From: Mytilus galloprovincialis
Lineage: Eukaryota > Mollusca > Bivalvia > Mytilida > Mytilidae
Direction: 5' to 3'
Assembly: GCF_965363235.1 (NCBI RefSeq)
Contig: NC_134849.1
Span: forward strand, 63,445,122-63,509,121
Length of the DNA stretch: 64,000 nt
Positions 35,616 to 64,000 of this stretch are shown here, in pieces. Made by a program: the position numbers and the translations under genes. Each line of letters starts with the position of its first letter. Position 1 is the first letter of the stretch. The notes beneath the pieces were generated by a model, which saw nothing but the letters and a program-made list of their open reading frames with translations, was not told where the DNA came from and did not search any database.

Positions 35616-35728
35616 TACCTTCAGAGTGCTTGTTTACAATGTCAAAAACATAACCCTATATATTTATTATAGGCAATATTGGAAAATTTACATGAAGTAC
35701 CTTATAAATGCTTGTTTGTAATGTATAA
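35616..35728 (+). repeat. Start of a ~80-100 bp tandem repeat, split from 37020-37560
   Basis: Units read TACCTTCAGAGTGCTTG, ACAATGTCAAAAACATAACC and a TATT.GGCAATATTGG end. Family D sequence then intervenes before the array resumes. Confidence 0.55.
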
Positions 35729-36390
35729 TTAACTCATCATATAAACCAGGGCTAAATTTTGTATATACGCCAGATGCGCGTTTCGTGTACAAAAGACTCA
35801 TCAGTGACGCTCGAATCCAAAAAAGTTAAAAGGCCAAATAAAGTACGAAGTTGAAGTGCATTGAGGACCAAAATTCCTAAAAGTTTTGCCAAATACAGCT
35901 AAGGTAATCTATGCCTGAGGTAGAAAAGCCTTAGTATTTCAAAAATTCAAAATTTTGTAAACAGTTAATTTATAAATATAACCATATCAATGATAATTCA
36001 TGTCCGCACAAAAGTGCTGACTACTGGGCTGGTGATACCCTCGGGAAAATAAATCTCTACCAGCACTGGCATCGACCCAGTGGTAGTAATTAACTCATCA
36101 TAGATACCAGGACTAAATTTTGTGTATACGCCAGACGCGCGTTTCGTCTACAAAAGACTCATCAGTGACGCTCGAATCCAAAAAAGTTAAAAGGCCAAAA
36201 AAATACGAAGTTGAAGAGCATTGAGGACCAAAAATCCTAAAAGTTTAGCCAAATACAGCTAAGGTAATCTATGCCTGAGATAGAAAAGCCTTAGTATTTC
36301 AAAAATTCAAAATTTTGTAAACAATTAATTTATAAATATAACCATATCAATGATAATTCATGTCCGCACAAAAGTGCTTACTACTGGATA
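35725..36390 (+). repeat. Family D repeat, two tandem copies (period ~359 bp)
   Basis: TTAACTCATCATA, ACGCCAGA(T/C)GCGCGTTTCG, GACTCATCAGTGACGCTCG and GGTAATCTATGCCTGAG occur twice, 359 bp apart, with few differences. Confidence 0.8.
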
Positions 36391-42500: not shown

Positions 42501-43345
42501 GAACACCTCTCTCGACATAGATAGAGTAAACATACATTGGGAGATATGCAAAGCGCTCTTTACAGACAATGTTATACTTGGGCTAGATATTGTGGACACA
42601 TTGGGCGCAGTGATAAATCTGAGCACTCCCGTACTTACAATCAATAACAAAGTGATAAATGCGGCATTTGTCGAAGTTACGCCAAACTCTGAAATGACTA
42701 TTGCCATTAAAACTAATAAAAGTGCTGACCAGGAGTTCAATTAAGAACCATGCCCGCTGACTCGTTGGAAAAGGAAATAGTTGTCCCTTATACATTTTGA
42801 ATGATGGCAATCGTCACATCCGCCTGAAGAAAGCTACACCTATATTGCTTACATAATTCGACGATATAGTGGATAAGACAAGACGGTAAGACGTGGCATT
42901 GCCGAGACACTAGACAAGGTTTCCTCGATACGGCCTCAAAGTTCAGATAAGTTACCTAATATGTCTTTACATTATTTAACCGACCTATAACAATGTTCAA
43001 TCGACTCACTTCAACCTATTTCATTCCAACCGTTAAAACTGAAAGCGAGTAAAGAACAATTACAATAACATCTTACATATTGATTAATATTTTGATTTTC
43101 ACTTTTTGTTTTTGTATATGCAGCCATATTTGCAAATGTATGCGTTCTAGAAATAAGCAAACTATCTTATTTATATCTAAAAATTAATTGATAACAAATT
43201 CAAAAACATGAAGACCATTTTTAAGGATCATTACTTTAATAGCTAAAATCAAAGGGTATACTAACAAGAACTACTGTGCAAAGTTTCATGCTTTCCTCAT
43301 CAAACGAGCAATTCTGCTCTATATCTGCACCAATCGGCCGGACTA
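39523..43345. mobile_element. Unit with TA-flanked inverted ends enclosing a gag/protease fossil
   Basis: TA then GTCCGGCCGATCGGTG (39525-39540) mirrors CACCAATCGGCCGGAC then TA (43328-43345), with weaker inverted similarity for a further ~40 bp. This looks like a DNA-transposon shell of about 3.8 kb; the gag/protease fossil lies inside it. Confidence 0.6.
40168..42745 (+). mobile_element. Fossil LTR-retrotransposon fragment: gag-like and protease-like parts
   Basis: Shows a gag-like region followed by a retropepsin-like end resembling Ty3/Gypsy-type elements. No reverse transcriptase, integrase or long terminal repeats were found. It is broken, with roughly five or more breaks, and looks old. 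Confidence 0.6.
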
Positions 43346-44395: not shown

Positions 44396-44474
44396 GCCTA
44401 TTCCATGATCTCATTATAATCTACATTTTGAATGTTATTAATTTGTCATTCGCAATTACAAAATTTTAATCCTA

Positions 44475-44835
44475 ATATCTATGTTGGGTTTATTTACAAC
44501 CACTTGGTCCTTGACACTGCTGGTGGAGTTTTTATTCTCCGAGGATATCACCAGACCAGTAGTCTGCACTTATGTGTTGAAATGAATAATCATTGATATG
44601 GTCATAATTAAAAATAATTGTAAACAAAACTTTAAATTTTTGAATGCTAAGGCTTTTCCACCTACCGAAAAGATTACCTGAGCTGTATTTGGCAAACGTT
44701 TTCAGATTATGCTCCTCAATGCTCCTCAATTTCGAACGTTAATAGGCCCTTTCTACTTTTTTTTCGAGGTGAATCGTCACTGATGCGTCTTTTATAAACG
44801 AAACGCGCGTCTTGTGCAAATGCAAAACTTCAATC
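44475..44835 (-). repeat. Family D repeat
   Basis: Complement order of 5636-5885; GAATCGTCACTGATGCGTC and ACGAAACGCGCGTCTTGTG near its right part. Directly precedes ankyrin exon B1. Confidence 0.7.
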
Positions 44836-44893
44836 TTGAGATATATGATGAGTTTATTTAACTGTAAAAGTAAAATCTGTGTTTTACTTACAG

Positions 44894-44974
44894 AAACTTA
44901 TCACCGCTTCTCGGGATGGAAATGTACACGATGTGAAAATATGGCTAGGAAATGGAGCAGATATTGACTTTGAA
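44894..44974 (+). CDS. Ankyrin exon B1
   Basis: 27 codons starting KLITASRDGNVHDVK and ending NGADIDFE, a copy of exon 28379-28462. Acceptor CTTACAG, donor GTAGGTAC. Confidence 0.82.
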
Positions 44975-47900
44975 GTAGGTACAGAAGTAACATCTGAACC
45001 ATTAATAATAGAGCAAAATACTTACATACAAAAATAACACATACACCTATAGATGAATTCAGAACATAGTAGATATCACTGATCTCAATCAATATTAATC
45101 TAAAGGTTACTACATTATACAGCAAATTGTAATAGAATAAAAACAACTACATGTTACTTCTAAACTGTAATAAAATAAAACACATATTATACAAATTACT
45201 TAAAAATACAGCAAATAGTAATAGAATGAAAGCGTGGCGGAAGATATCAGAGGAACATTCAAACTCACGGATTTAAAACAAACTGACAACGCCATGACTA
45301 AAAAAGAACACAAGACACAACATAAAATACTAAAGACTAAACAACACAATCCAATCAAAAATTGGGTATGATCTCATGTGTTCCAGGAGGGTAGCCAGAT
45401 CCTGATCCACATGTGGCATCTGTTGTATTTCATATGTTATAACAAACCCGGTAAATAGTCTCGTTTAAATTTGGTAGGTCAAATTCGTGAAAAGGGAACG
45501 GGATTGAAGTTACGACATAAGGAACATATCCAATATCATCTGTGAAACATATCTTCCGTAACGGTAACGTGATGGCGTCCGTAAAATTTACAAAGGGATG
45601 ATTTCAACGTCACTGTTTGGAACTCTTGGTTTAAAAGCTTCCCCGTGAGCAACAACCCTCTATCAAGGAAATCATGATAGAAAATACAAGCCCTGGCATA
45701 TCGTATTAATAGGGAGATATATACTTCGTATGCAGGCACTGCTTGAATGTTGCTACATAGAAATTAGACGTTCCCAATTTGGAAGCTGACATTATCTCTT
45801 TGGTCTTAAAGTTTTGTTGTGAACCGTACCTCATTGTCCCTTTCTAGATATAGGTCAAAATATATATGTATTTAATGAATCCTTTATCACAAGTTCGATA
45901 ACACAACTACAAATTACTTCAAGTACAACGAACTGTCACAGAATGAAACACATATACAAATTACTTCAAAATACAGAAAATTATATTGGAATAAAACACA
46001 AACGCAAGTTTCTTCAAACCACAATTCATTGTAAAAGATTAATACACAACCACAAGTTACTTCAAAATACGGCGGACTGTATCAGTATCAACACGATCTC
46101 ATATAACTTCAAAACACTGTCACTGTAACTGAATAAAACACAAATACAAGTTACTTCATCAGGTAGCAAATTGTAAAAGTATAAAGCAACACTACACATC
46201 ATAACTTCAAAATACGGGCAATAGTAACAATATCAAACACAACAACATGTTAATTCAACATAGTGCTGATTATACTAGTATTAAATCAAAACTGAATTGT
46301 ATAAAGTGTGTCTTTTTTCACTTGTATTATTGTGCTGAATCAGAAAATATGTCTTTTTATTTATTTACATGATGTGACTATTTGTTTTTAATTATATTTA
46401 ATATACTGCATTGTCCTATATATCATGCAATTGTTTACGTCCGTTGTTTAATTCCAGGAGTATGGAATGACAGCATTTATGTTTGCTTCCAGAGAAGGAC
46501 ACCTGGAGGTTACTCGTTTGTTACTTGAAAGCAATTGTGAGAAAGATATCACAGATGTATGTTATCTCCTCGATCTTATCACAGTCCACTTAACACTAAA
46601 TTATGTTGTAAATTAAACAGGTTTAATAGACAACAATTAATTGTTAAAATTATATTAGGGATCTCATTTTACTTGTCACCTCCTACTTGATCAATAAATT
46701 GATCGTCATTCTCAGTCATGTTAATAGAACCGATTTAATCATTATATTATCAAATACTTGCAAGGATTATATAAAATGCGATGTCGTTTTACTAAGAACA
46801 AACTTCTAATGAATACATTTATATGAATATTTCATACATTTGATGAAAACAATTGTGTTATCATGACATATCTGATGGAACTTCTAATATCTCACAAAAC
46901 ATGTGGTGTATTTGTTGTTTATACTACCGTTGCCTTTGTTTATGGACAATATGATGTGACAATACATTATTTTCATTTTTTAGCACTGATCCATATGAAA
47001 TATGTTTTGTAAAGTTTATCAGTTTTTATGTCAGTTGTAGAATATGTTGTATATTATTGATATAGCAAAGAATAGTACATATTATTTAATGTTATTTGTA
47101 TATTTTGTAGAGAGGGGGGAGAACAGCTTTACACCTAGCTGCTCAGTATGGACATGAACTGGTTACAAAATATTTAGTTGAACATGGCATGTTCAGTCCC
47201 TTGGTTAAAACACATCAGGTAATTGTTTATTGCACATGACCTGTGTTCCACTATTAAGTAATGAATTTTTAAAAACATGTATAAAACATGTTTGGTCAAA
47301 TGGATTCTTTTTTCGGTTCTATAGCATTGAATAGTTAAAGTCAAAAGTCCTTTAAATTGAACTTCAAATATGAAAATGTTTGGAAAACTTTGGTTATAAC
47401 TAGCTAAATTTTACTATAAAACTTATTAGCTTAGACTATTTTATCAGATAAATCTTTCATTTTTTTCCATCATTTGGCCAATTAGATGTACCAGAATTGT
47501 ATACTTTTATTAATATTTTAAATGTGTATAAATAATAGACTGACCAAATCCTTGTCCTTGTTGTTATGAAAACCAGCAGAAACAAACAAACAAACTGTTT
47601 AACTGCACATACACCAATCATGACAATACTTACAAAGATATAAAAATATTCTGAGCAATGCGTTGGCATACGTTCTTCGTGTTTCTTTATATATAACTAG
47701 ATGTTAACAAAAACTTGAGGTGGCAACGATGGTGACAATTTCTGGTGGGCAAAAAATATTATGAATAAACACTACTTGTACAAAATGTTGTAAATACGTT
47801 CAATTAGATGAAATAAAAATTGATTAATCATTTCACGTTGTTGCCAGTTGTAATATATTTTAGTGCAATGATTTGAAAAAGATGACCCTATGAAGACTGC

Positions 47901-48641
47901 AAATTTCTTTAAATTTCTGTATTCAAAAGAGGGACGAAAAATACAAAAGAGACAGCCAAATTAAGCTGTTTGGTGGCAGAGATACATACAATCTTCTCAG
48001 AATATATATCATTTTATTATTTTTACAATACCGGTGATACAATATTATGATAACAAAATTATATGCTGTAAATAACAGTTAACTGATAGAGGACGATGTG
48101 GAGGGTTATACAGATTAGAAAATTATGAATTAAAAAACACATTAAGAATGGAAATAATAACAAATAGGGAGCCAAAATATAAAGATTAGAAAGTAAACCG
48201 TTTTAAAAATGATTAAGAACTGTGAATAATGTGTTAAAAAACGAAAAAAAAGATAGCAATGAAGACCCCAAAATCCCATACCTCATAGCCCGCACGCAGA
48301 CATAGGGATGCATTTACCAATCCTCAAACTGCAAAAACGAACATTATATAGTTAACATCTATCGATTTAAAAATGAAATAAAATACAACACCATTCATCT
48401 GGTGCTTGTCTTACTAATTGTAAAAAGTCTTCTTTGTAATGAGAAGAACGCATTTTAAAAAAGCGTCTTTATTTCAGGGTAAGACCCCATATGACCTAGC
48501 AAATGAATTGAAACTGGGACAGTATAGCGAAGTGATGAAATACTTAAAGGTACGTACGGTGTTGAATAACAAATTCTTACACTACGCATCAATCAAGTAG
48601 AAAATAATTTGCAAAATCTCAGTTCTGTTTATGTATCGATT

Positions 48642-48707
<66 letters not shown>

Positions 48708-51700
48708 AATTGAGTTTTTCACATGTCAATCAGACATGTCCAGGATTCATTTTACCTTGAACTGATGTGCATGGTTCATCGAACAATATTTTACATATGA
48801 AACAAACTCATTTGTACTCTTGAATTTAAGGACATTGTTCACATTGCCAACAAATTATGCAAAATAAATCATGTGAAAATACGTTTTTATTATTTTTTTT
48901 TATTTCTTTTTTATTCTAGGTTTCAGTTTTGAATTTTATGCATTTTTAATGGATATTTATTTTAATGTATATAATTTTTTAACTTCTTTAAATTTCCGGC
49001 AGAGTAAAATAACAAATACTACCTAACTCAATGAGATATTAAAAACGCGAGGTTCTTAATGAAATGGCAAAATAAAATGCTCAAACACATGCAAAAAATG
49101 GAAAACCACTGTCCTACTTCTGATTTGGATCAGGCATTTCCTTACCTAGAAAATGCCTGGAATTGACCTGATTTTATAGCTAGGTAAACCTCTCACTTGT
49201 ATGACAGTCGAATAACAATTGGAAAATCGTTCTGAAATTTTGAAGGAAAAAAAAGGTGGTGCTGATTTTGGGCGTGATCATTTTACATTAGTGTAAATTT
49301 TGTGTTGCCAGATAATTCTAGCTGGTCCTGAGCTCATGATTTCTATGAACACATGGATAGTAAAACCAGTAGTCAACTTCACTTATAGTGATCTGATGCT
49401 TCAATTCTTTTTAAACTGAATATATCTTATATACTTGAATGGCAACGTTTTACTATAAAACAAATTTAAGTAACTTTTTTTTAAATAGAACATCATTTTT
49501 TCTTATAAAAAACACGTCATAATAATGTACTGCTCTTGAATTAGTGTCTACCCGTTAATTCGACGATATTGTTCCGTATGTAGTCAACGTCAACACTTCT
49601 CGATACAACTTCGGCGCCGATTTAGCGCAATTGCGGCACCCCGTAACGAAGAACGTGCACCGGAAGGTAAATAGTTAATTGGAAACTACAAATCATTTTA
49701 GCTCCAATAGCTCTGTTTTGACTGTTTATCAATGTCAAGATGCTCTAATAGCTCTGTGTTGCTTGTTTATCAGAGTCAAGATCTTGTAAACTTCGGAAAC
49801 AACCTCAAAAGTTAATAAGCTTGTGATTGACCATCATTGACGAAATATTACATGCCGATAACACGTTATGAATTCGAAACTGAAGTTAATTTGAACTGTT
49901 TAATCAGCCATCTTAGAAATACACGATTTAGATATATTCACCAATTGTCGACCGATATTCATATATGTTAAAAGTTCACTAACAAGATGGAGAGTTGTAT
50001 CATTGGCAATCCTACCACATCTTCTTTTTTTATATTTACAATCTCTGCAACAAAAAAAAGACGAAATTCTTCTTGCTATGATTTCCATATAGACATCATA
50101 GATATTAAGTTAAAAAAATTGAGACCTCTCCTAGTGACACATGTACAACGGAATGTGCAAATACATGTACAATCAGGATTGAGAATGTAAAGTTTTACTT
50201 ACGGAAACAATGAAAACTTCATTAGTTCTGATGATGGGATCGTGATTTCAACTCGTGATTCAAATCTCGTATTATTATTTGATTAAATGATAAAGTAATT
50301 ATTCATGGCACATCCAAGTATTGTCCGAATTCTGTTATCAATTGTATTTTATCCATGGATGCAGAAAATATGTTTCTTTATATTTTGCTGGGATACCGTC
50401 AAAACATGAGATCACGCACACTTATTTCTGGAGCCATTTATCCAGCTTTGCATTGATAGATATCAAGTATTCAACCCTTTATCTACGTATATTGATTTTA
50501 AAAAGTCTCTCCATAATGTTGGTAGTGAAATGTATCTTTTAGATATCATAACATATATATCATTTGATAAAAAAAGAAAGGCAAAAGATTTTGTAAAAAT
50601 ATGATTTCTATTTTATTGTACGTCATCTGATATATGGTTATAAGATAAATTCAGTTTGAAAAATCTAGATAGAGAAAAACAATTAGAAACAAGGGCCGTC
50701 TTTTCCTTTATAGATCTCTTGATAATTTTTGTTTGTAGTCTATCATGTCAAAAAAGGCTGATGATGATAAACCAGAAGATAAACAGGAAACCTATATACA
50801 GATGCAATCGACATTTACAGGTAGTGGTTTCACTCACTAGTATTTTATCCTTTCTTTAATGTTTGTGTTTTTAATGGCTACACAATTCGCTGTTTCAGAA
50901 TCTAATGCATTCTGGTTAATATTTCGAAAAGCGTACACTAAAACGTTCTGTTGGTTTATAACGTGATAAACAATAGAAATTCAACCAGTGACGTAACGTT
51001 ATTTTTATTTTGGTGTACGACCTATGAGATTACCAATAATCCTTTAGATTATGAAAAGGCGAATTAGATACGGTTCTATAAATATGAATTTAAAATAAAG
51101 AGAAATAATCAAATGCTTATATATCACTGAGTTATGAACTGCGCCTTCATGAAAATATTACTTTATCGATTTAGCTTTGTTCTTTATGAAATTATTTCAA
51201 TATCTATAAATTATATATTCTTTGTAGATGACGTAGTTCCGATTGAAATCAAACTGATGTCTGACAAAAAATCTGTCCCCTTGTACCTAAATTTACTTGA
51301 GTCAGGTTTTGAGGAAAAAAGGGATATTCGATTAGTCATTGTGGGAAAAAAAGGTTCTGGGAAAACATCTTTAGTGAAGAGATTGTTTGGAGTCGACAAG
51401 AGCGAAATACCAGAGGTGACCAGTACTAATGGAATTGAAATCCATAGAATCAGATGTGACGCAAACACTGATGCAGGCATTTGGAATATATTGGATGGTA
51501 AGATATTTAAACTTTTAACATTTATTATTCTCTATAACAGAAAAGTTCTAGATATTTATGAATGGAATAATGTTCCATTTTGTTGTTAATATTTGAGTTA
51601 TTTAAAGTGAGTTTGGGTAAATTTTAGCAGTATCTTTAGAGAATTTTTGATTACAAAACGAAACATATCATCAAAATATTTGCAAGACTTAGTATATATG

Positions 51701-54700
51701 TTGTTGAATGTATCAGTTAAATGGAATTCAGACGGGTTTGTTTCTTAATTTAGCGATGATCAGCTTTTGCTAAAAATCCCGAAACAACTCTGCTATATTA
51801 GTGAGAGAATTAGTGCCCGTATGAAAACCTGCAATCTGTTTATTCTCCTCAATTATGAAACATACAAAATCGTTATCGAGGAGAAAAATTACGGCCTGAT
51901 TCATTTTCAACTGGTATGTCTAATATACTAACCTTTCTCTTAAGAAAAGAAAGCTTTATATTAATTGAAACAAATAGTATGCATTTAAAATTTATTGAAC
52001 GATCATTCAATTAGAATGGACTTTCTTTTGTTTCATAAGATTGTGTGTAAGTGTATAAAGCTTTTTTTTCAAAACTGTCTAACAAATCAAAAGGACCATC
52101 TAAAGAACGTTATTTATAACATAAAAATATTCAAACACAAAACTTTGCTCCAGAAATGTTAAATTCCGCTTTCCTCATATTTTCTAGTACAGAAATAATG
52201 ATTGAAATTATTTAGACATGTTAACATAATTCAATTTGTGGGCCGGTGAGGGAGGGCATTTGCTATAAAAAGTTAAATCACAAACATACTGAACTCAGAG
52301 GAAAATCAAATCGAAAAGTCCCTAATCACATGGCAAAATCAAATGACAAAACACATAAAAAACGATGGACAAGAATTGTCATATTCCTGACTTGCTACAG
52401 GCATTTTCAAATGTAGAAAATGGTGGTATAAAAGGATTTCAATAACATCCCATTTACTTTTCTTTCAGAACACCAAAATGTAAAAATGAAGATGTGGTAT
52501 GCTTGCCCTTGAGAAAGAACCGTCACCAAATTATACCCTTCCAAACAAAGCTAATCTTATTTTTGTGATATCCTCTTATTTCAGCACTTTTATGTTAACC
52601 AATACGTTAAACTTACGAAAACATCAAGGTATGAGGTTTATGAAATGTGATGATCACTACCAATATTAATCAACTTCATTATTCAATATCAACGTTTAGG
52701 ATGTTCTACTATGTTAAAGAATAGACTGATCAATAAAGATTTTTTTCCGCTTATTATTCTTTCTTTTTATAAATGTAACTAATAACAAAAGTAACATTTT
52801 GTTTTAAGTATAAAAAAAAACTTACATACATTACAACTAATTCAAGCACCAAATATTACCAATGAATTTTCAACTTATCGGGCTGAACCTTTTTACCCCG
52901 TTATATGTGTACAAAAAGTAGCAATATAAATATTTAATCAATGAAATTAATGTGTTCAAACACGCTTTTGTCAAAAGGTATAGATGAAGTTATTGTTGTA
53001 CTCGAAATACCAGTTAAAATATTGATACTGCTACTCCTAACGTTTTCTGCAGTTTCATGTAGGTCGTCAATTTGTAATAAAATGCACATGTAATTTTGCC
53101 GCCATACGTATACAAGTGCCCAATATTTTATCACATTTAAAGTTAGATCGGTTAACTTCAGATGTATTCAAATTAAACTGATATATATTCAAAATTAATA
53201 CAATGTGTTCACATTGGACATACATTGATGAGAAATGAACGTTCGACATGTTTATATTTTTTGTTCGAAACAAATACTCAAAAACAACGAAATTTAATCC
53301 CTCATAGAACTATACCATATACATTTTAGCAAGTTAATAAATGAAATATATGACCTTTGTCCTAAAATTAAATATCAAAAATAATATACCAGCATAAAAC
53401 AATTGAAAACAATTGAATACATGTCATTTAACTAATTATAACTACCATCGTACAATGTCTAATCTTCTCCTGATATATGATGAAAAAGCATCACCCAAAG
53501 ACGTCATTTTACCAAATTTGAAAACAAAATCATTAGTTTTAATGGAATCAGTACAAGTTATCTTCGCCAAATTAAAGTTAACAAATGTTCAATCTACCAA
53601 AATTTTAGTCTTGAATATCTGTTATAAGTAGTGTATTTTTCCTCATATAGTTCATTATACTTGTGGAAAGAACGTTTTCACAATGAAAAACATAAACGTA
53701 CCGAGATTTTTCATCAACAGACGTCATCAATTTATCCCTGTCTAACAACGAGGTACTTCTCTTTGCGTATCAAGATTCAGTAGGAAATATGTTATCCCTA
53801 AATGTAAAATATTTTCATCGTGAGCAAAGTCTGGGTTTTGTGGTTCAACTGCTATAGATGAAATTAAATTGCGGAGGTTGCTACTCACCATTATATTGTT
53901 GTGATATAAAGAATCATAAAGATGTTCCAAATGGACATCACTGATCAAAAGAATGCATAAGACATTAGCTATAGGTAACTTACATTTGTACTATATGTCT
54001 AAAGTAAAGTATTATGAATAAAAAGTAAAATAACAAAAATACTGAACTTAGAGGAAAATCAATTCGGAAAGTCCATAATCACACGGAAAAATCAAATAAC
54101 AAAACGCATCAAAAACGAATGGACAAGAACTGTCATATTCCTCACTTGGTACAGGCATTTTCAAATGTAGAAAATGGTGGATTAAACCTGGTCTTATAGC
54201 GCTAACCCTCTCACTTTGATGACAGTCTCGTCTATTTCCGTTATATTTACATTGATGCGTTAACTAAACAGACACAATAAATAAAATAGTCAGAATATGG
54301 GTACATCAGTCATCATCGTATAACAATTTTAAAAGGAACAATTTAACAGTAATAAATTTCAGTAGTAAATTTAAAAATTTAACGAGGCTCACAGAAAATC
54401 AATTAAACGGTAATAATTGTTGAATTTATCAAAAAACCTACCAACTGAGACCCCAATGGGTAATAAAAGTCGGTAAACACCCTCCTGTATCATATAGATA
54501 GAATGCATATACAGATAATTAGATGTGGTATGATTGTCAATGAGACGACTTTCCACCAAGATCCAATTCAAGTGACTATAATCAATTAAAGCCAATCATA
54601 CGGCCCTTTTTGCCGTTATAATCGTTATATTACAATTGTTGAATTCATTTTACTATAAACAAAATTGAATTACGTCGAAGGACAGTTAAAAATATAGCTG

Positions 54701-57700
54701 TAATTTTAAAATTTGTATTTCATGAACACTAACATTAAATGAATTTGGAAAACAATGATTGTGGGTTTTTTTTTTATTACATTGTTAAACTTTTCTGCTA
54801 ATATTAAGTCAAAGAAAAAATGTACTTTTTTGCAGACGTGTAATCTTTGCTTCACATCAGAAAATCCACTGCAGTATCTTTATAAGGAATATTAATACAT
54901 TTTTTTTATTTCGATATAATTACATTAGATGTATGTTTCATTATAATACGTCATTCTGATTGGCTACACTGCAGTCTCGCGTTATTCCTTAATCAACTTC
55001 ATAAATAAAATAAAAATAAAGTTTGTCATTCATGATGACAAGAGGTCCCACAATAAAGTACACAGGTAAATTAAATAAAAACTTGATAAAAAGCGTTGAC
55101 CGTGCCAACCGTTTTGGAAAAATGTACTTCGGACTAGCTTTTAACAACCCAATGAAGTTACAAAAAGAAGCATTCAATTCTTACGTGAATTATAATCTAA
55201 TTGATATTTACAATTTATCGTCGATTTAATCAAAATTAAACAAATAACTATAAATTTTGTATTTTTATTATTTTATGACAGGTAACATTAAAGAAACTGA
55301 CCTTAATGAAAGACTTATACAATCGTTTGATAAAACATTAAAGAGCCAAGGTGAAGAGGGCGTTGACAGAGCAGTAAAAGAAGGAGGACCATGGGCACCT
55401 CCTGTAGCAACTAAACCTTTGGTTACATCTCGTATAGTATATGGGGATGCTGATTTTGGTGATGATGATTTTAGTGATGATGATGCTAATGAGGATGAGG
55501 AACCATTTCTCGTATCGTATGATCTACAGCCAAATCTATTATTAGAACAAACATATAGAGATATTCAGACCATGCTTAAATCTAAAGTACATTCATATAA
55601 CAAAAACGACTTTGCCACATTGTTGCTGTGGGATTTTGCCGGAGATGAAGAGTTTTACCATACACATCAGACCTTTTTGTCTCCTTATTCAATTTATCTG
55701 GTTGTTGCAAAACTTAATGAAGCTCAAGACAAAGAAGCACAAGGTACGTGTAGTTACACGATCAAGCCGTCATTTTCACTTGACCGAGAATTGTTCAGAA
55801 TACCATGCATGAAACTGGCAAAAGATGTTTTTAAATGACTTATTACACCTTGAAGTTTATAAATATTGCTGACGAAAACGAATATTTAAGATCTACTATC
55901 ACACATCTCAGATAAGAGATAAATTTGTGTGTTAAAAAGAAAAAAATAACTCCATTAGTTGAATTGGAGTAGGTAAGAAAAAAACAGTATTTATAATTAT
56001 TCATGAGATAACTTTTTTATGAATGATACATGCAAATGTTAATTCCTGTCAAGTTAGATACCAGATTTTAGTTTCGTACTGTACTGATTTGTACATACAT
56101 CACGACGGGTGCCACAAGTGGATCAGGATTTGCTTACCCTCTCTAAGCAACAATGAGTATCCTAAGTTTTTCGTGGGGTTTGTGTTTCTCGAGTCTACGA
56201 TTTTCTATGTTGTGTTTTGTAAACTATTGTTTGTCCATTGGTCTTTTTTCTATTATTGCCATGGCATTATCTGTTTATTTTCGACAGATGAGTTTAAGTA
56301 TCTCAGGTATCTTCTGTCCATCTTTTACATAAAATAATAGTGAAAAGCAATCAACTATGTATTTGAACAGTCCTATGGAAACATATCATCGGTATCTATG
56401 AAAAATTATCTTGTCATTTTATGCGTTGTTGACTGCTGTTTAGCTGTAATTATTTCATCTTTTTTTAACCACTGAATCAAAAATCTTCATTGCATTTTTA
56501 GAAAAAAAAATGGTTTATTTCTTTATAGATTTATTCAAACTATGGATGGATTCAATACATTGCTACAGTAGACTGGAAGACGACAAATACAGTTCTGATG
56601 ACAGCAAGACAACACCAGACGATCTTGATCCACCAGTAGTTATTGTTGGCACTTGGAAAGATGCTGTGACCTCAGAGTCTGGAAAGGTATAGAATTTGTA
56701 TAAAGCACTTCTTATCTCGATGTTAACCCATTTGTTTTTGGTATTTTGCAAAAAAAAAATCATATCATATTTGTCTACTGCATGTTAACGGAAGCAAATA
56801 ACATAAGTCATCATATTATAAATAAATTTTCAAGGCAAAGTAGAATTTACCCTAACAGATTTTCAAACCATTCAAAATAATTATTATAACATGAAGTCTT
56901 AATGATTTTCAATGGTTTAAACGTATTTGTCCAGCGAACAAAAAAAAATAAGCAGAAAAAGAAATATTTATTTTTTCTAGATTAAAACTTCATGCAAAGA
57001 AAACATCTTAAAGTATACTAAAAATATGACTGAAGATGAACTTCGGCATGTAAGGCATGACGTGTTCATTTCCAATACAACTGATGATGACAGTGTGTTT
57101 CAGCCAATACGACAATACATCTTAAGTTTAGCCCGACAAATGAGAACATGGAATACAAAGTATCCTTTAAAATTTATTCAGCTAGAAAAATGTCTTCAAC
57201 AGAGAAAGAAGGAGTTACCAATTATAACCTTTCAGGAACTAAAACAAATCTCTACAAAAACAACAAAGCCGTTGAATAACGAGGAACTAATTTTGTTCTT
57301 GAAATTCCATCACGAAATCAGAGCTTTAGTTTTCTTTGAAGATCTTCCAGATTATATTATTTTAGATACACAATGGTTATCTGATGCGTTTAAAAGTATT
57401 GTGACTGCAAAGGGTTTTCAAAGTGTCAGCATAAAGAATCAAAAAAGATGGTACGACTTTCACTCTAAAGGAAAATTGCATAGGCTGGTTTTGGAAGATC
57501 TATTAGACGAAAAAGAAAACATTTTGTTAAAAAACAACATGGACCATATCCTAAATGTAATGGAGAAATTTGATATCATTATACGTCCAACCAAATCAGA
57601 CTGGCATTCTGCTGTTGAAAATGCTTGTTATTATGTGCCGTGCATGATTAAAGCAAAACCCAAATGTGACATTTATGAACTGTTCAATGTGACAGATTAT

Positions 57701-60700
57701 AACTGTAAAAAGTCCACTTGGTTCTGTTTTGAGTTTAGATTTTTACCACCAAATCTAATGAATCACTTAATTGCTTCACTGTGTCGAAAATACGAACTTG
57801 CGGAAGTAGGTGTCACAAAACAAGTAATAGGACAAAACACAGAACAAGCCGAAAGGGTAATTGCCCTTTTTAAAGGGGTTGCTGTCTTCGAATTACAGGA
57901 GACAACAAAATTAAGTAAATTACTAGTAACAACACGTCCAAATTCGATTCAGATTCAGATTTGGGAATTTGCGGAAAGTGCTAGTATCAAGAGAGGTATG
58001 TACAAACCCATTGTGGACTTTGTAACCGATGAAATAAACAAAATTATAAGAACTAGATTTAAGATGACAAATGTCAGCTTTGAGAAAAGGTGGGAATGTG
58101 GCCTTACAAAACCAGACTCGGTAGAAGGATCAAATAAGTTTGGTAAAAAGAAGATAACAGAATATTACTGTGTACCATGTACATCAACCCACAAGTGCAA
58201 TGGTGAATGGTTAGATACAGAAAGTGAAGAACCATTTGTAAGTGAATAATTAAAATGTGAGACTTTTTCTTTTGGATATAAACAATGACACAAGTGCGTG
58301 TTTTTTTCAGAAGCAACAGTGGCATGGAGAGATAATGTAGAAAGTACTAAAAAGTAAAATCACAAAAATACTGAACTCCGAGGAAAATTCAAAATGGAAA
58401 GTCCCTAATCGAAGGCCAAAATCAAATGATAAAACACATCAAACGAATAGATAGCAACTGTCATGTTTCTAACTTGGTACAGGCATTTTCAAATGTATAA
58501 AATATAATTTTATACATTTGAAAGAATTTCTAACTTATGAGTCATAGGATAACTACATTTGATATAGAGGTTCTTCCAATGTCTACATGACCGTCAGACA
58601 ATGTTAACCTGAACTTGGCCTCATTTTATTAATACAGATTTTTCGTTGTCAAATTTGTATCCTTGATATTATAAACAATATGTGATCTATATTTATTGTC
58701 TCGATTGGTGCTAAATATTAACTGACAGTGTGCAAACGAAAATTGACTGTCACTTAAAATTTCCAAGAGCATGTTCTTAGAAGAATACCAACGAGTTCTC
58801 ATGGCTCGCTTGGTCTGAACCTGTTTAAACATAAAACATTTGACGAAAATTCCCATAAAAAAGTCATCCATCTGTATTTTGAAATGTATTTATACTGCAA
58901 ATATACAACTCATTACAATAATGACATTTTACAGGATGTCTATCAGAAGAAACCCGGACAGAAGGGACTAGTCCTGATTGTTAACTTCTTGTTTAGTGGC
59001 AAACCAAATGAGAGACAAGGTAATATATATCTGGTGCAGATAAATTGGTACGGTCATGACTGTTGATAATGTAATATAATGAGTATTCACTGGGAGAATG
59101 TTAATAAGGTCAGAGATATGTTCCAATAAGCAATACTGTAAACCAACCTTTTTACGCGAGCGATTTATTTTTGCGACTTTCGCGAGTAGGAAATTAACGC
59201 AAATATGAATCGTCGCGAATATGTAAAACATGGCTTATTCGTTGTTCAACTACATAAACAAATTTGAAAATCGCAAAATTAAACGGTCGTGAAAAGAGCT
59301 AGTAAAGGCGAAACGCGAAATAAAGTATCCGCGAAAATAAGTTGGTTTACAGTAAGTAAAATTCACATAGTGAAACAAAAACATGAGTATGATAAGATAC
59401 ATTCATAATAATTCAGCTGATCTGTAATATTCTAGCTTCGCGGCTTACATATCATATCTACTATGTTATGAAACAAGATAAAAACTGTCAAGAAAATGTA
59501 ACACTCGGCCACCGAAAGCTTGATTTTTTTTTTTAAATTTAGCGCGCCGAGCATTATGCAAGGTGATTTAGTGCCACGATATCTCAGTAGAATGAATACC
59601 AATCCCGTCTAGAGAAGAACAAACATTTGCATCCGTAAATTTACTGATCTAACATTGTTGGGATGTTATTCAGACGAATTATATATATTAAACTGAGTTG
59701 TGAAATGTTGTGGTTAAATTGAAAAATAATAAGATTGTTATTTGGTCTTTGCTATCATATTCAGTGGGTTCGGAAATACTATGTTTGAGATCTTGTCGTT
59801 GTCAAGTAAAACCGTAACCTTTCATGAAAATGATAAATTTCAAAAAAAATATTGAAGTGTTTTGCTGAAAGCTTGTATAATTTGATTTTTTTTATGAATG
59901 ACGTTTGTGAACCTGATTAATTTTACTGGTTTCTTTTATCCGACAATATGGTGTTTTCCAGAACATTTGATGGGCCAGCATTTTTGCTGTCTCTGATGCA
60001 TACCTCACACTATAAAATAAAAAAAACAAAAGCCATTGAACATTATCTAAATGCAGGATAATGATCAAGTCGATTGATAACTTGCATGTTGGAATCCATG
60101 TACACATACGCTGCACCTATTTGGTTTATAGTTCAAAACATTCATTTATTGATCATGGGATTTGCTGACCTTATTTTTGGACCAAACAAAACTTTGATAA
60201 ATAAATATTTCCCGTTTATTTGTGATGTGAAAAAAAAATGTTCATCAAATCAAGCTGAAATAATTCATGATCAATATGGAAGTTGGATTATTAAATTACA
60301 TCTGAACTCTGCACTGTCTCAATGTGTAGTATTTTATCACCCCAAAAGTAAACCGCAATGATAAGACATAAAATAAACATACCCATGTCACATTTTCCTT
60401 TGCTTTGCCTTTTATTGTATATCATTCTTTGTAATGAGAGCTTGTATTTAGGATTTGATATAATTTGCTATGATGACTTATATGTTTTAAGCTGTCTAAA
60501 AGAAATTAATCAGGGTATATCATTTCAGGCAGAGCTGGCTTTAACAGTTTGTCTGTACTGTTTAACTCGTGTTGTCTTGAGGGGCCGATCGTTCATGTTC
60601 CAAGCTTCAAAAATTTGGTATTGAGTGTATTTCTAAAGATGTTCTAGGAATGTGTCTGGCAGTGGAACATTATTTCCCCTTTTTTCTTGATATGTGTTTA

Positions 60701-62570
60701 TGAATAGATGATATTCATTTGCTTTTTTATTAGATTTTCTTTTCTAAATACATCCTTTTGATTCAGGTTCTGAAATAGATGTCAAAAACCTGACAGTTTT
60801 CTTTAGAGATGAATTAGAATACCAAGTTGAATGTCAATCAGACATGACAAAGACGGATTTACAGATATATCTCCAGAATTTTGAAAAAGACAACTTGACA
60901 CAGAATGCGAATGCTTACCATTCCTTTATCTGTGTAGTAATGAGTCATGGAGATGAGGTATTGTATTCAATATTGTCCAAATATTTAATGAATAGGAACA
61001 CACTTCATCTAAACTTGAAGATGGTTTTTACAAAAGACTATAATTGAAAATACCACTTTAAATACTATAAGAATAACACTTTTTAAGTTTGCTTATTCTT
61101 TTCTGTTTAACGAAATTGCAGTGAACATAATTTGATTGAAATGCAAATTGCAACTTGAAAGAAATGTATATAAGAATAAGAAGATGTGATATGATTGTCA
61201 ATGAGACAACTTGAGAAAAATGACACAGAAATTAAAAACTGTAAGTCACCGTACATAATTCAACAGTAAAAGCCCATACCACCTAGTCAGCTATGAAAGG
61301 CCCCAAAATGACAAATGTAAAAATAATTCAAACGAGAAAACAAGCGGCCGTATTTATGTACAACATAATGAACGAATAACAAATATGTAACACAGCAACA
61401 AACAACAACCACTGAGGTATATACTCCTGTCTTCGATCAGGCACATACAGAATGTGGCGGGATTAAACTGATTTGAAATCGTCAACCCAACATATAACAT
61501 TGGTGTAGCAGAACAACATTAGAACAATTTATGAAAATAAGATGGAAAGTCATCAGATGAATACATAATATAAATATATCTAACAAAACCAGAGTGGACG
61601 TGGACGGATACATTTCAACAACAAAAAGAAAATACGGGTACCGTTATGAGAGTAATCGCAACCACTGACAGCTAATACAAAGCCAATCACAAATAATGAA
61701 AAATGAATGCATCTAAGAATAATATCATTCAGTACACATCCAAAATCTAATTGATTTAGTGTAAAGACGTCACAAACAATAAGAGAAAAATATAACCAGG
61801 TATCGACAGAAATCCTAGACCTAATAATTTACCAGTAATGCATGGGTTACATTCATAGAAACCCGAAACGTCACAACAGACACGTGTATAGCGAACGAGT
61901 TTTTATGTATATAAATAATGTAAGATGGTGCAAAAGGAATATCACAGTCCAAAAACTAATTCTAACAATAGGGAACAAAAAACCGTCTCTTTTGTCGTAA
62001 ATGTTGGTGTATATGTTGGTTCAATGATATACTTCAATATATAAACACACAAGTTTAGTATAATCTACTCAAATTTAAATCAATATCTAAAAGTGTACTG
62101 TAAACTGTTATTCAACGCTTTGAAATAAAAATGAGAATGGTAATGGGGAATGTGTCAAAGAGTCAACAACCCGACTAAGAACAGTCAACAGCAGAAGGTC
62201 ACCAACAGGTCTTCAGTGCAGCGAGAAATTCCCGCACCCGGAGGCGTCCTTCAGCTGTCCCTAAACAAATATATGTACTAGTTCAGTGATAATGAACGCC
62301 ATACTAAACTCCAAATTGTTACAAGAAACTAAAATTAAAAATCATCAGTTTTCCCCAAATATAAATAATTTAAAAACTCAAAATTGACTCGAAAACTGTT
62401 TCTGATGTATTCATTTGTTTTAGCACTTGCTGTTCTAAGTACGCATATCCTAGTAATTTAGTTACATTATTTTTTTCAGAACGGAATTCAAACTCTTGAT
62501 GAATCAAAACGGATAACTGTGAAAGAGATACAAAGGCCATTCAAAAACAAGCCTGATGGAAAATTCAATG
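44894..62570 (+). CDS. Ankyrin-Roc-COR-caspase (ROCO-caspase) protein, 3' end beyond window
   Basis: Twelve exons: 44894-44974, 46458-46556, 47111-47218, 48478-48549, 50739-50820, 51228-51497, 55282-55743, 56529-56686, 56981-58237, 58935-59019, 60767-60957, 62480-62570. All have GT/AG sites and compatible phases (0,0,0,0,1,1,1,0,0,1,0,1), about 985 codons. Order: ankyrin repeats (residues 1-120), a charged linker, a Roc GTPase (P-loop GKKGSGKTS; G2-region STNGIEI; G3 LWDFAGDEEF; G4 VGTWKD), a COR domain with the ILDTQWLSDAF motif, a CxxCxxxHxC knot, then a caspase p20 half with KGLVLIVN, NERQG and the catalytic-His box VVMSHGDE. Roc-COR proteins are dimeric GTPases (LRRKs, DAPK1); caspases cut after Asp in death and immunity. 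The fusion suggests GTPase-controlled protease activation, which is inference. The QACRG cysteine exon should lie past 64000. No secure start exon is seen; the gene may begin at 27344. Confidence 0.88.
45215..45855 (-). mobile_element. Family E retroelement: 3' end of a reverse-transcriptase gene and its tail
   Basis: On the minus strand, 45739-45536 reads EVYISLLIRYARACIFYHD, then LDRGLLLTGKLLNQEFQ and LKSSLCKFYGRHH. I recall this conserved C-terminal block from RT-bearing retroelements of molluscs and cnidarians (LINE- or Penelope-type; class not certain). The rest toward 45215 is the noncoding tail. 5'-truncated; lies in the intron between ankyrin exons B1 and B2. Tail fragments recur at 7455-7615, 21780-21965, 56105-56335 and probably 31605-31700. 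Confidence 0.65.
46458..46556 (+). CDS. Ankyrin exon B2
   Basis: 33 codons with the ankyrin pattern MTAFMFASREGHLEVTRLLL. Acceptor ATTCCAG, donor GTATGTTA, as in exon 29283-29381. Confidence 0.86.
47111..47218 (+). CDS. Ankyrin exon B3 (canonical repeat)
   Basis: 36 codons with GRTALHLAAQYGHELVTKYL, the clearest ankyrin repeat of this gene. Acceptor TTTTGTAG, donor GTAATT. Confidence 0.88.
47219..48477. other. Intron between ankyrin exons B3 and B4
   Basis: AT-rich. A short family E-like piece may lie at 47925-47965. Nothing else recognised. Confidence 0.4.
48478..48549 (+). CDS. Ankyrin exon B4 (half repeat)
   Basis: 24 codons with GKTPYDLANELKLGQ, ending VMKYLK. Acceptor TATTTCAG, donor GTACGT. 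It closes the ankyrin block; a GA-microsatellite follows about 100 bp into the intron. Confidence 0.85.
48649..48706. repeat. (GA)n microsatellite
   Basis: About 28 uninterrupted AG dinucleotides, 100 bp into the intron after exon B4. Confidence 0.95.
49003..49210 (+). repeat. Family B repeat
   Basis: Marks: GAGTAAAATAACAAATACT, ATTTGGATCAGGCATTTCC, CTCTCACTTGTATGACAGTC. Diverged. Confidence 0.6.
49986..50035 (-). repeat. Short family A end
   Basis: GGAGAGTTGTATCATTGGCA and CCTACCACATCTTC are the complement of the family A start. The rest of 49211-50738 is intron without recognised features. Confidence 0.5.
50739..50820 (+). CDS. Charged linker exon between ankyrins and Roc
   Basis: Acceptor TTTGTAG ends at 50738. 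It encodes SIMSKKADDDKPEDKQETY and more, with one base carried to the next exon (phase 1). It contains an ATG (SIM-SKK) that might serve as a start of a shorter form lacking ankyrins, but nothing here favours that. Confidence 0.7.
51228..51497 (+). CDS. Roc exon 1: P-loop (G1) and G2
   Basis: Encodes an acidic lead-in, then IRLVIVGKKGSGKTSLVKRL (Walker A, GxxGxGKTS) and EVTSTNGIEIHRI, the T-x-GI(E/D) box typical of Roc domains. Phase 1 at both ends. The frame runs open upstream to 51134, but the acceptor at 51227 and the matching phase mark the true exon start. Confidence 0.9.
51498..55281. other. Long intron between Roc exons 1 and 2
   Basis: Holds family B copies at 52268-52430 and 54019-54240 and short family A starts at 52486-52530 and 54520-54610. 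The 68-codon frame at 55023 lacks an acceptor and is not called. Nothing else recognised. Confidence 0.5.
55282..55743 (+). CDS. Roc exon 2: long acidic insert and G3
   Basis: 154 codons, phase 1 in and out. The first ~115 residues form an insert absent from compact Roc domains, with a Pro/Trp patch (EGGPWAPPVATKP) and an acidic run (DADFGDDDFSDDD). Then follow LLLWDFAGDEEFYHTHQ, the G3/switch II box with the HQ-FLS motif common to Roc domains, and the IYLVVAKL strand. Donor GTACGTG at 55744; the frame beyond it is intronic. Confidence 0.88.
56105..56335 (+). mobile_element. Family E retroelement tail fragment
   Basis: GGGTGCCACAAGTGGATCAG, TTTTCTATGTTGTGTTTTG, TTGCCATGGCATTATCTG and CAGATGAGTTTAAGTAT give the family E tail in plus orientation, in the intron between Roc exons 2 and 3. 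Confidence 0.6.
56529..56686 (+). CDS. Roc exon 3: G4
   Basis: Encodes FKLWMDSIHCYSRL, a Ser/Asp-rich loop, then PPVVIVGTWKD, the guanine-recognition strand (TxKD type). Acceptor CTTTATAG, donor GTATAG; phase 1 in, 0 out. Confidence 0.85.
56981..58237 (+). CDS. COR domain exon
   Basis: One large exon of 419 codons, phase 0 at both ends; acceptor TTTTTTCTAG ends at 56980. It covers the Roc-COR link and COR: EELILFLKFHHEIRALVFF followed by YIILDTQWLSDAFKSIV, the winged-helix signature, then the second half (WFCFEFRFLPPNLMNHLIA, FKGVAVFELQE). The end carries YYCVPCTSTHKCNGEW, a possible Cys/His metal knot. The frame stays open to a stop at 58249, but GTAAGT at 58238 is a strong donor and the next exon continues in phase, so the main product should read on into the caspase. 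Retention of this intron would give a form without protease. Confidence 0.9.
58347..58523 (+). repeat. Family B fragment ending in a 37-bp palindrome
   Basis: Family B start (AAAAGTAAAATCACAAAAAT) to GGCATTTTCAAATGTA, then the sequence folds back: TTTCAAATGTATAAAAT against ATTTTATACATTTGAAA (58487-58523). Confidence 0.7.
58935..59019 (+). CDS. Caspase domain exon 1
   Basis: Encodes DVYQKKPGQKGLVLIVNFLF then NERQG: the first caspase strand (KGLxLIxN) and the Arg of the R-x-G motif that contacts the substrate Asp. Acceptor TTTTACAG ends at 58934; donor GTAATA at 59020; phase 0 in, 1 out. Confidence 0.82.
59134..59354. mobile_element. TA-target MITE, TACTGTAAACC family, complete
   Basis: Ends TACTGTAAACCAACC and AGTTGGTTTACAGTA are inverted repeats with TA at the borders (Tc1/mariner-like). 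221 bp, rich in CGCGA motifs (CGCGAG, TCGCGAATATG, CGCGAAAATAAG). Same family as 7654-8659. Lies in the intron between caspase exons 1 and 2; the rest of that intron (59355-60766) shows nothing recognised. Confidence 0.85.
60767..60957 (+). CDS. Caspase domain exon 2 (catalytic histidine)
   Basis: Encodes the helix NLTVFFRDELEYQVECQ, then a Tyr-x-Ser-Phe-Ile strand and ICVVMSHGDE, the catalytic-His box of family C14A. Acceptor GATTCAG ends at 60766; donor GTATTG at 60958; phase 1 in, 0 out. The frame past the donor is intronic. Confidence 0.87.
61180..61565 (+). repeat. Family A repeat
   Basis: Begins GAAGATGTGATATGATTGTC and runs to GGAAAGTCATCAGATGAATA; includes TCAGCTATGAAAGGCCCC. Located in the intron between caspase exons 2 and 3. 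Confidence 0.75.
62130..62340 (+). repeat. Dispersed repeat with GTCAACAACCCGAC / CCCGCACCCGG marks
   Basis: Contains AGCGAGAAATTCCCGCACCC and GGAGGCGTCCTTCAGCTG, a block I recall as repetitive in bivalve genomes. Only one copy is present in this window. Confidence 0.45.
62480..62570 (+). CDS. Caspase domain exon 3
   Basis: Encodes NGIQTLDESKRITVKEIQRP then KPDGKFN: the G-x-x-x-x-D turn and the helix before the KPKxFxxQACRG strand of caspases. Acceptor TTTTTTCAG ends at 62479; donor GTAGGG at 62571; phase 0 in, 1 out. The exon with the catalytic Cys is expected downstream and no candidate was seen up to 64000. Confidence 0.82.
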
Positions 62571-62996
62571 GTAGGGTTTTAACATAATGTATGTGAAAAT
62601 CATCAATTAACAAAACTCTTTGTTATTTTCCTACAGACATGATTGATAATGACATCGGAATCGTATCTTGGTTGATGAACACATGCTTTATTTTATATCA
62701 GATTTCGTGTATTTGCTTACACTGTTTGGATAAAATGGCATTAACTTTGTTTTAGACTAGTATTTACTGTTAGATACATGTATATGGACTATTCTATATT
62801 TCATACTTGAACTTTTACTTTTGACATAAATTATTTATCCCTTTTATTTTTTATTAACTAAGTATTTGCATTCAGGTATTGCAGACCAAATTTTTTCGTT
62901 CTTTGTGTGCTAATTTGCGTTTTTTGATTGCGTTAAGCTTCCAAATGAAATTATATAGTGTGTTTTTCTATGCTGTCATGTTCTACTATTGATTAA

Positions 62997-63904
62997 GAAC
63001 AGGAGAAGGTTTGATACCATCAAAACGTTTAATCCGGCTGCAAAGGTTTGCACCTGTCCTAAGTCAGGAATCTGATTTAAAGTAGTTGTCGTCTATTTAT
63101 TTAGTTAATACTTGTTTCTCGTATCTCGTTTTTATATAGATTATAGTCGCCATCATGTTAAATTGGTACCATGTTTTCGGTTGAAAAAAAAATAAACTAA
63201 CAACCGCATTCATTCGAGATAACGGTTTACAATTAAGGGAATCAAATATAATGCCAAAAATTAACTACTGTCCAAACTTTTATTGTGTTTGCACTGTATA
63301 ATCCCGACTTTCACGTAATCCAAGATTATTTTGTATGGTGGAATCCGACATCGTTATTACCTGAAGTGATGCCGTGGAGTTCCACGTGCTGTCTATTTTC
63401 TCGTGTCTTTCGCAGCTTTTCATCATCCCTACTCAAAAAGAGCGGGTAATTGTATCATCAATGAAAAGAATATTACCGGAGAGTAACGAATGTTATGTAA
63501 ATAAGGGATCCACATAGATACCAAGATGGCGTTATTTCAATGTAAATAATCTTGAAAAATGTGATGGTCAGGATTATATAGTGCAAACACAATAAAAGCT
63601 AGGTCAGTAGAGGATATTTTGACAGGATTTTTCTTCTGCAGATTGAAAAAAATATCAGCTCGAGGGAATGCGGCTGATATTTAAAAAATTGTGCCAATTT
63701 AACGTGACGGTGACTATAGACCGTTGATTTTCCCGGTTGAATTGTTTTACACTAGTAATTTTTTGGGCCCCTTATAGCTTGCTGTTCGGTGTGAGAAAAG
63801 GCTCCATGTTAAAGGCCGTACCTTGGCCTATAAAGATTTACTTTTATAAATTGCTATTTGGATGAGAGTTGTCTCATTGGCACTCATACCACATCTTCCT
63901 ATAT
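62997..63904 (-). repeat. Family A2 repeat, split by a TA-target transposon
   Basis: The right part is the complement of a family A start (GAGTTGTCTCATTGGCACTC, ACCACATCTTCC); the left part holds TTTGCACCTGTCCTAAGTCA and GTTGTCGTC. The two parts are parted at 63144-63716. Confidence 0.7.
63144..63716. mobile_element. TA-target non-autonomous transposon (TAGTCGCC family)
   Basis: Ends TAGTCGCCATCATGTTAAAT and the complement of TTTAACGTGACGGTGACTA match over about 25 bp with several differences. TA is duplicated at 63142-63143 and 63717-63718. 573 bp, noncoding. Joining the flanks restores a GATTAGACCG-like family A2 sequence. Confidence 0.75.
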
Positions 63905-64000
63905 CTATCTTCACTTTGTATACCATTTCAAGTTACTAATATTGTAATGTCATAATGTATAATTGGCAACTATACAATAACCTTCGTTTGACCTCACTCT

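What the first reader, a model, noticed from the sequence alone, without database searches (positions are those of the whole stretch)
44894..62570. Ankyrin-Roc-COR GTPase fused to a caspase
Seen: ankyrin repeats, a Roc domain with G1, G2-like, G3 and G4 boxes, a COR domain with its DTQWL motif, then caspase p20 sequence with the substrate-binding Arg and the catalytic-His box, all on phase-compatible exons. Known: DAPK1 pairs ankyrins and Roc-COR with a kinase and death domain, and LRRKs pair them with a kinase. I recall no described animal ROCO protein ending in a caspase. Inference: a GTP-gated, dimerising caspase in which ankyrins sense a ligand, Roc-COR brings two protomers together and the protease fires. 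This would be analogous to NTPase-caspase sensors of immunity built on STAND ATPases, but with a Roc GTPase.
Basis: partly seen in the sequence, partly recalled or inferred. Interest (0 to 1): 0.88.

Follow-up and report, generated by a model that had tools for sequence, protein, structure and literature searches.

The report
Likely mussel GTPase-sensor fused to caspase
In a mussel-like genome, exons for an ankyrin-repeat GTPase sensor are followed closely, in the right reading phase, by exons for the first part of a caspase (a cell-death protease), which probably make one sensor-protease protein, although no RNA was available to prove that the two are joined.

Summary
The parts are real. Twelve + strand exons (44894-62570) encode ankyrin repeats, a Roc GTPase, COR and the first half of a caspase p20 (Pfam: Ank_2 6.5e-24, Roc 4.8e-13, COR-A 6.7e-12, Peptidase_C14 3.7e-14). 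I added one exon (50739-50820) that removes a phase clash between the last ankyrin and first Roc exon.

The fusion is probable, not shown. For: a 697-nt gap, partly a mobile repeat; phase 0/0; a GTAAGT donor near the end of COR-B; no coding-like upstream exon for a separate caspase in the gap. Against: that junction has the gene's weakest donor and acceptor by a simple matrix; a stop follows four codons on; an in-frame ATG (58884) could start a short caspase, and 24 of 46 surveyed bivalve caspases are short. The catalytic-cysteine exon is not in the window.

The architecture has precedents: bacterial Roc-COR tails with caspase-fold CHAT or TIR (11 and 26 of 72), bacterial Roc-COR-caspase in print, sea anemone Roc-COR-TIR. 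My 10 paper searches showed no animal Roc-COR-caspase. Verdict: probable new animal variant of a known kind; transcripts decide.

The parts
44894..44974 (+). exon A1, ankyrin repeat (KLITASRDGN...)
   Evidence: AG/GT borders, phase 0-0; Ank_2 best stretch residues 2-86 of the spliced model
46458..46556 (+). exon A2, ankyrin repeat
47111..47218 (+). exon A3, ankyrin repeat
48478..48549 (+). exon A4, last partial ankyrin repeat (GKTPYDLANEL...)
   Evidence: ends phase 0
50739..50820 (+). exon R0, charged linker (SIMSKKADDDKPEDKQ...); carries phase 0 to phase 1 and has an in-frame Met
   Evidence: added here; AG/GT borders and phase, codon score 0.300 per codon
51228..51497 (+). exon R1, Roc G1 P-loop GKKGSGKT and switch I region
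55282..55743 (+). exon R2, acidic insert and Roc G3 DFAG
56529..56686 (+). exon R3, Roc G4-like TWKD
56981..58237 (+). exon C1, COR-A and a COR-B-like second half; ends near the end of COR-B; donor TTT|gtaagt at 58238
   Evidence: COR-A 6.7e-12, no Pfam hit for COR-B; hhalign to nine bacterial COR regions: 228 columns, residues 103-394 of 419, E 8.1e-6, probability 84; MAFFT alignments to the end
58247..58249 (+). in-frame TAA stop used if C1 is not spliced (adds V-S-E)
58348..58503 (+). interspersed repeat inside the C1-P1 gap; close copies at 52266 and 54019 (both in the R1-R2 intron), 28674 and 13605 (reverse)
   Evidence: self-comparison
58884..58886 (+). only in-frame ATG in the open frame upstream of P1; possible start of a separate short caspase
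58935..59019 (+). exon P1, start of caspase p20 (DVYQKKPGQKGLVLIVNFLF..., substrate-binding Arg)
60767..60957 (+). exon P2, caspase p20 to the catalytic His (SHGDE)
62480..62570 (+). exon P3, caspase p20 after the His; the catalytic Cys would be on a later exon
   Evidence: no QACxG-like motif in 62571-64000

Best explanation
One + strand gene of a mussel-like bivalve encodes ankyrin repeats - Roc GTPase - COR-A/COR-B - caspase in a single polypeptide, made by splicing 58237 to 58935. Most likely mechanism (inferred): the ankyrin repeats bind a ligand or partner; the Roc-COR tandem changes between monomer and COR-B-mediated dimer as it binds and hydrolyses GTP; COR-B ends only some 10-15 residues before the caspase, so dimerising it places two caspase domains side by side and switches them on by proximity, as adaptors do for initiator caspases. 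Which nucleotide state is 'on' is open; by analogy with the Chlorobium Roco I favour GTP as the monomeric off state, but the GAD model says the opposite. Where the weak junction is not spliced, the stop at 58249 would yield a sensor-only form. Shown here: the domains, exon borders and phases. Inferred: the junction, activity and mechanism.
For: Domains. The junction is phase 0/0 and C1 ends near the end of COR-B. GTAAGT occurs 15 times on the + strand of 64000 bases, and one lies in the last 13 nt before the stop (about 0.3% by chance). The donor has 6 of 9 U1 matches, mid-range for the 12 donors (5-8). The 697-nt gap is ordinary beside the other ten introns (294-3784 nt) and holds a 156-nt repeat of which two close copies sit in the R1-R2 intron. 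The only in-frame coding that a separate caspase could take from directly upstream of P1 is 59 codons, and these score like noncoding DNA (-0.181 per codon against -0.026 to 0.330 for the 12 exons; 144 of 280 open stretches outside the exons score as high or higher). Precedent: Roc-COR with C-terminal caspase-fold or TIR effectors in bacteria and with TIR in sea anemones.
Against: No transcript. By a simple matrix (values recalled) the 58238 donor is the weakest of 12 and the P1 acceptor the weakest of 12; an equally good phase-0 donor is expected in the last 60 nt with about 10% probability. Of 50 phase-compatible site pairs two (58090 with 58784 or 58781) score higher, though they would cut the COR-B end. 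A stop follows at once; 59 codons upstream of P1 are open, more than at any of the other 11 acceptors (0-33), with an ATG at 58884. 24 of 46 bivalve caspases in a published survey are short, and none of the prodomain types listed there is Roc-COR (PMC7836458, passages). The catalytic Cys was not found in the window. The codon score is weak: C1, P2 and P3 themselves score near zero.
Confidence: 0.6

Rival explanations
1. Two genes head to tail: an ankyrin-Roc-COR gene ending V-S-E-stop at 58249, and a separate short-prodomain caspase whose first coding exon begins at ATG 58884 (or after another first exon in the gap).
For: In-frame stop at 58249 and an ATTAAA overlapping it; TATAAA at 58277, 58496 and 58670; in-frame ATG 58884 with 59 open codons upstream of P1, and 10 further ATG-to-GT phase-0 candidates in the gap, 2 to 23 codons long; weakest donor and acceptor of the gene at the junction. 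Short caspases are the commonest kind in the bivalve survey, 24 of 46. C1 reaches about the end of COR-B, so the protein could end there.
Against: The terminator of one gene and the promoter and start of the next must fit in about 690 nt, 156 of them a repeat. The stretch upstream of P1 scores like noncoding DNA. ATTAAA and TATAAA are each expected about once in such a gap (my arithmetic from the base composition), and there is no AATAAA. The phase match and GTAAGT would be coincidences.
Confidence: 0.28
2. The caspase exons are a dead or partial copy, or a misjoined haplotype, next to a normal ankyrin-Roc-COR gene, and make no protein.
For: The caspase part matches only positions 2-108 of 233 of Peptidase_C14 and the cysteine exon was not found; the loop after the first strand is three residues shorter than in caspase-3.
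Against: Three exons with AG/GT borders, open frames, agreeing phases, and the conserved Arg and His. The next intron may simply run past the window end; the two before it are 1747 and 1522 nt.
Confidence: 0.1
3. The ankyrin exons are a separate gene: translation of a Roc-COR(-caspase) protein starts at the Met in exon R0.
For: R0 has an in-frame Met with a stop codon directly upstream in the genomic frame.
Against: R0 has an acceptor scoring in the range of the others and is phase-compatible with A4; ankyrins before Roc-COR are an established order (DAPK1, LRRKs; recalled).
Confidence: 0.1

Closest known systems
Bacterial LRR-Roc-COR proteins with C-terminal CHAT (caspase-fold) domain, e.g. 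Nostoc sp. ATCC 53789 plasmid pNsp_j (L006)
   Same: Sensor repeats, Roc, COR-A, COR-B, then a caspase-fold protease after COR-B, in one open reading frame; 11 of 72 further tails match CHAT
   Different: Leucine-rich repeats instead of ankyrins; CHAT instead of a metazoan Peptidase_C14; prokaryotic; about 20% identity in Roc-COR
Prokaryotic AP-GTPase conflict systems (eLife 2021, PMC8195603)
   Same: Roc (AP-GTPase)-COR with variable C-terminal effectors, caspase named among at least 24 (passage)
   Different: Bacterial; LRR sensor; no animal Roc-COR-caspase in the passages I read
DAPK1
   Same: Ankyrins before Roc-COR, link to cell death (recalled; grouping in PMC6337361 passages)
   Different: N-terminal kinase and C-terminal death domain; neither is in the model here, and a protease follows instead
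Sea anemone NG1/NG3 and Aplysia ROCO-TIR proteins (PMC5094078, PMC9334734)
   Same: Animal Roc-COR joined to a TIR domain (passages)
   Different: TIR, kinase or death domains, not caspase; COR in NG1 found at a low threshold
Bivalve caspases (46 surveyed, PMC7836458)
   Same: Metazoan caspase p20
   Different: The prodomains listed are CARD, DED, DD, DSRM or none (passages)

Membership tests
ROCO protein family | Roc GTPase domain with G boxes | tested here: met
   PF08477 4.8e-13 (best stretch profile 45-105 of 119), PF00071 1.3e-4 over the P-loop; GKKGSGKT, DFAG, TWKD; LRRK2 3e-13
ROCO protein family | COR domain immediately after Roc | tested here: met
   PF16095 COR-A 6.7e-12; COR-B gave no Pfam hit, but profile alignment to nine bacterial COR regions covers 228 columns, E 8.1e-6
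DAPK1 group of ROCO proteins | N-terminal kinase and C-terminal death domain | tested here: inconclusive
   Neither is among the families found in the model; the 5' end was not found and no kinase search of the upstream DNA was made; after COR a caspase follows
Metazoan caspases (Peptidase_C14) | p20 fold with substrate-binding Arg and catalytic His | tested here: met
   PF00656 3.7e-14 over 2-108 of 233; caspase-3 alignment keeps Arg and SHG
Metazoan caspases (Peptidase_C14) | Catalytic Cys (QACxG) and p10 subunit | not testable with these tools
   No such motif in 62571-64000; the window ends and no genome is held
Roc-COR-effector proteins in one chain | Effector on the same polypeptide as Roc-COR | tested here: inconclusive
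   Phase-compatible splice 58237/58935 is possible and favoured, not shown

The most novel reading that the evidence does not exclude
An animal Roc-COR-caspase in one polypeptide: a cytosolic sensor that needs no adaptor, in which the COR-B dimer arm is itself the caspase-activating platform. A deliberately weak last junction with a stop four codons beyond the donor lets the cell choose between a harmless sensor-only form and an armed sensor-protease form.
Probability: 0.35. Interest if true: 0.8.

Novelty: new variant of a known kind. Interest (0 to 1): 0.6.

Why it matters
If joined, this would be a direct, adaptor-free link in animals between a Roc-COR GTPase switch and a caspase. It would extend to caspases the parallel between animal and bacterial sensor-effector proteins already seen for TIR. 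It would also give a small system in which to test whether the nucleotide state of Roc-COR sets the activity of an attached enzyme, a question still debated for ROCO proteins such as LRRK2.

Tried and rejected
No whole genome is held for the window, so paralogues, the downstream exon and animal relatives could not be fetched. A scan of viral contigs with the COR exon found no relative (5 pattern hits, none confirmed). NCBIfam gave nothing for the caspase part or exon C1. The AlphaFold model of exon C1 with ten bacterial COR rows failed (mean pLDDT 38.6, pTM 0.29) and is not used. Rfam: no match in the window at gathering scores. QICRG at 25384 lies in a 491-bp tandem array far upstream and was rejected as chance. 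A prodomain (CARD, DED) for a separate caspase between 58250 and 58934 was not seen by eye in the frames printed; I ran no Pfam search on that gap. An ankyrin pair at 29271/29710 was rejected as part of the same gene because an open frame with a hydrophobic tail (by eye) ends at about 30900, and the ankyrin queries gave only weak hits (E 0.38 or worse) between there and 44.8 kb. Of seven papers fetched, six were seen as passages (PMC7836458, PMC9334734, PMC8195603, PMC4104024, PMC6337361, PMC5094078) and one as abstract and outline (PMC11378527).
Full report
What is in the sequence. The window has no held genome; its repeats look like those of Mytilus mussels, which I say from memory. On the + strand between 44894 and 62570 I can place twelve exons with AG/GT borders: A1-A4, R0, R1-R3, C1, P1-P3. 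Spliced, the first nine give 863 residues with Ank_2 (6.5e-24), Roc (4.8e-13; best stretch is the second half of the profile, the P-loop is matched by Ras at 1.3e-4) and COR-A (6.7e-12). The last three give 122 residues that match Peptidase_C14 (3.7e-14) over positions 2-108 of 233. The closest solved structures by sequence are LRRK2 for Roc-COR (3e-13) and caspase-3 for the protease part (2e-8). The Arg of the substrate pocket and the catalytic His are kept; a motif for the catalytic Cys was not found in 62571-64000.

A correction to the finding. A4 ends in phase 0 and R1 must be entered in phase 1, so A4 joined directly to R1 does not translate. An 82-nt exon, R0 at 50739-50820, has AG/GT borders, is open, and carries phase 0 to phase 1. 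With it all eleven junctions of the model agree in phase and the 985-residue translation is open.

The critical junction. C1 either reads on through V-S-E to a stop at 58249, or is cut at TTT|gtaagt (58238) and joined to P1 at 58935, phase 0 to phase 0. For splicing: GTAAGT is present 15 times on the + strand of 64000 bases, so finding it within the last 13 nt has about 0.3% chance; its match to U1 (6 of 9) is mid-range among the twelve donors; the intron would be 697 nt, ordinary for this gene (the other ten are 294-3784 nt); 156 nt of the gap are an interspersed repeat, two close copies of which sit in the R1-R2 intron, while a weaker relative of the same family lies in the A4-R0 intron at 49003. 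Against: with a standard matrix (values recalled) the donor and the acceptor are each the weakest of the twelve, an equally good phase-0 donor would occur in the last 60 nt about one time in ten, and two of 50 compatible site pairs score higher although they would cut the end of COR-B.

Could the caspase be its own gene? Upstream of P1 the frame is open for 59 codons, more than before any of the other eleven acceptors (0-33), with a single ATG at 58884. That stretch has a noncoding-like codon score of -0.181 per codon; 144 of 280 open stretches outside the exons score as high or higher, while the twelve exons score -0.026 to 0.330. The score is only a weak guide because C1, P2 and P3 themselves lie near zero. 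The gap also holds ten small ATG-to-GT candidates in phase 0, of 2 to 23 codons, three TATAAA and one ATTAAA, the last overlapping the stop. I saw no CARD- or DED-like frame in the gap (by eye). A survey of 46 bivalve caspases counts 24 short ones without a prodomain domain, the rest with CARD, DED, DD or DSRM (PMC7836458, passages), so a short separate caspase is an honest rival. Both terminator and promoter would then have to fit into about 690 nt.

Where C1 ends. Pfam's COR-B did not hit, but a profile of nine bacterial COR regions aligns to C1 residues 103-394 of 419 over 228 columns, reaching column 277 of 295 of the profile (E 8.1e-6, probability 84). The last 25 residues rest on MAFFT alignments at about 20% identity, in which a cysteine near the end of C1 falls on the last conserved COR-B cysteine, but a different one in each of the two alignments. 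So exon C1 ends at or near the end of the ROCO core. This fits exon joining at a domain border, but equally a protein that ends there. An AlphaFold model was too poor to use.

Precedents. Searching plasmid records with the Roc-COR part gave 11 bacterial relatives. Ten of the 11 were scanned: one, from Nostoc sp. ATCC 53789, is LRR-Roc-COR-CHAT (CHAT 5.2e-34); two match EAD11 (one below the curated cut-off) and one EAD1. A scan of bacterial genomes kept 80 loci of 484 relatives; of the 72 with at least 100 residues after COR-B, 11 match CHAT and 26 match TIR_2. CHAT is a caspase-fold protease (recalled). None of the ten families found in the 72 tails at E up to 0.001 is Peptidase_C14. The sample was ranked by likeness to the CHAT protein, so the fractions are not estimates. 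In print, bacterial Roc-COR proteins are said to carry at least 24 kinds of C-terminal domain, caspase among them (PMC8195603, passage). In animals, Roc-COR with TIR is described for sea anemones (PMC5094078, passages) and Aplysia (PMC9334734, passages), and Trichoplax ROCOs carry CARD and death domains (PMC4104024, passage). My ten searches of the paper library showed no animal Roc-COR-caspase in the listings or in the passages I read; most subscription papers and bioRxiv preprints are not held there.

How it would work. The C-terminal half of COR mediates the dimer of the Chlorobium Roco (PMC6337361, passages) and would end some 10-15 residues before the caspase here. Initiator caspases fire when two are brought together (established knowledge). 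I lean to GTP as the off state and hydrolysis or nucleotide loss after ligand binding as the on state; this is inference. The Gln of Ras-like G3 boxes (recalled) is Asp here (DFAGDEEF), which may mean slow hydrolysis. The weak last junction and the immediate stop would allow a sensor-only form.

Verdict. Domains confirmed; joined gene about 0.6; two genes about 0.28; dead or misassembled caspase part about 0.1. If joined, it is a new animal variant of a known kind of protein (repeat sensor - Roc-COR - effector), not a categorically new one.

Noticed in passing
window 9658-10284 (+): 3' part of a small Ras/Rab-like GTPase gene ending in a prenylation-type KKGGCC tail (Ras 1.3e-7 for 118 residues of it).
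   Followed up: partly
window 29262-30902 (+): Separate ankyrin-repeat exons (Ank 7.1e-8 at 29704) followed by an open frame ending in a hydrophobic tail, resembling ANKRD46 (resemblance recalled).
   Followed up: partly
window 4404-5600: Minisatellite of 36 copies of a 33-base unit with strong strand skew, open in several frames on both strands.
   Followed up: no
window 40036-42744 (+): Cluster of overlapping open frames upstream of the ankyrin exons that looks to me like a retroelement gag-type region; four of its frames scanned, no Pfam family above cut-off.
   Followed up: partly
window 44458-44858 and 35727-36123: 400-base inverted copy (78% identity) lying just upstream of exon A1.
   Followed up: no
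L009 1342-7327 (Photobacterium toruni plasmid): A COR-domain (Roco) gene sits between TniB/HTH and TniQ genes next to a type I-F Csy2 gene, that is, inside what looks like a CRISPR-associated transposon.
   Followed up: no
window 25185-26659: Tandem array of three 491-base units.
   Followed up: no
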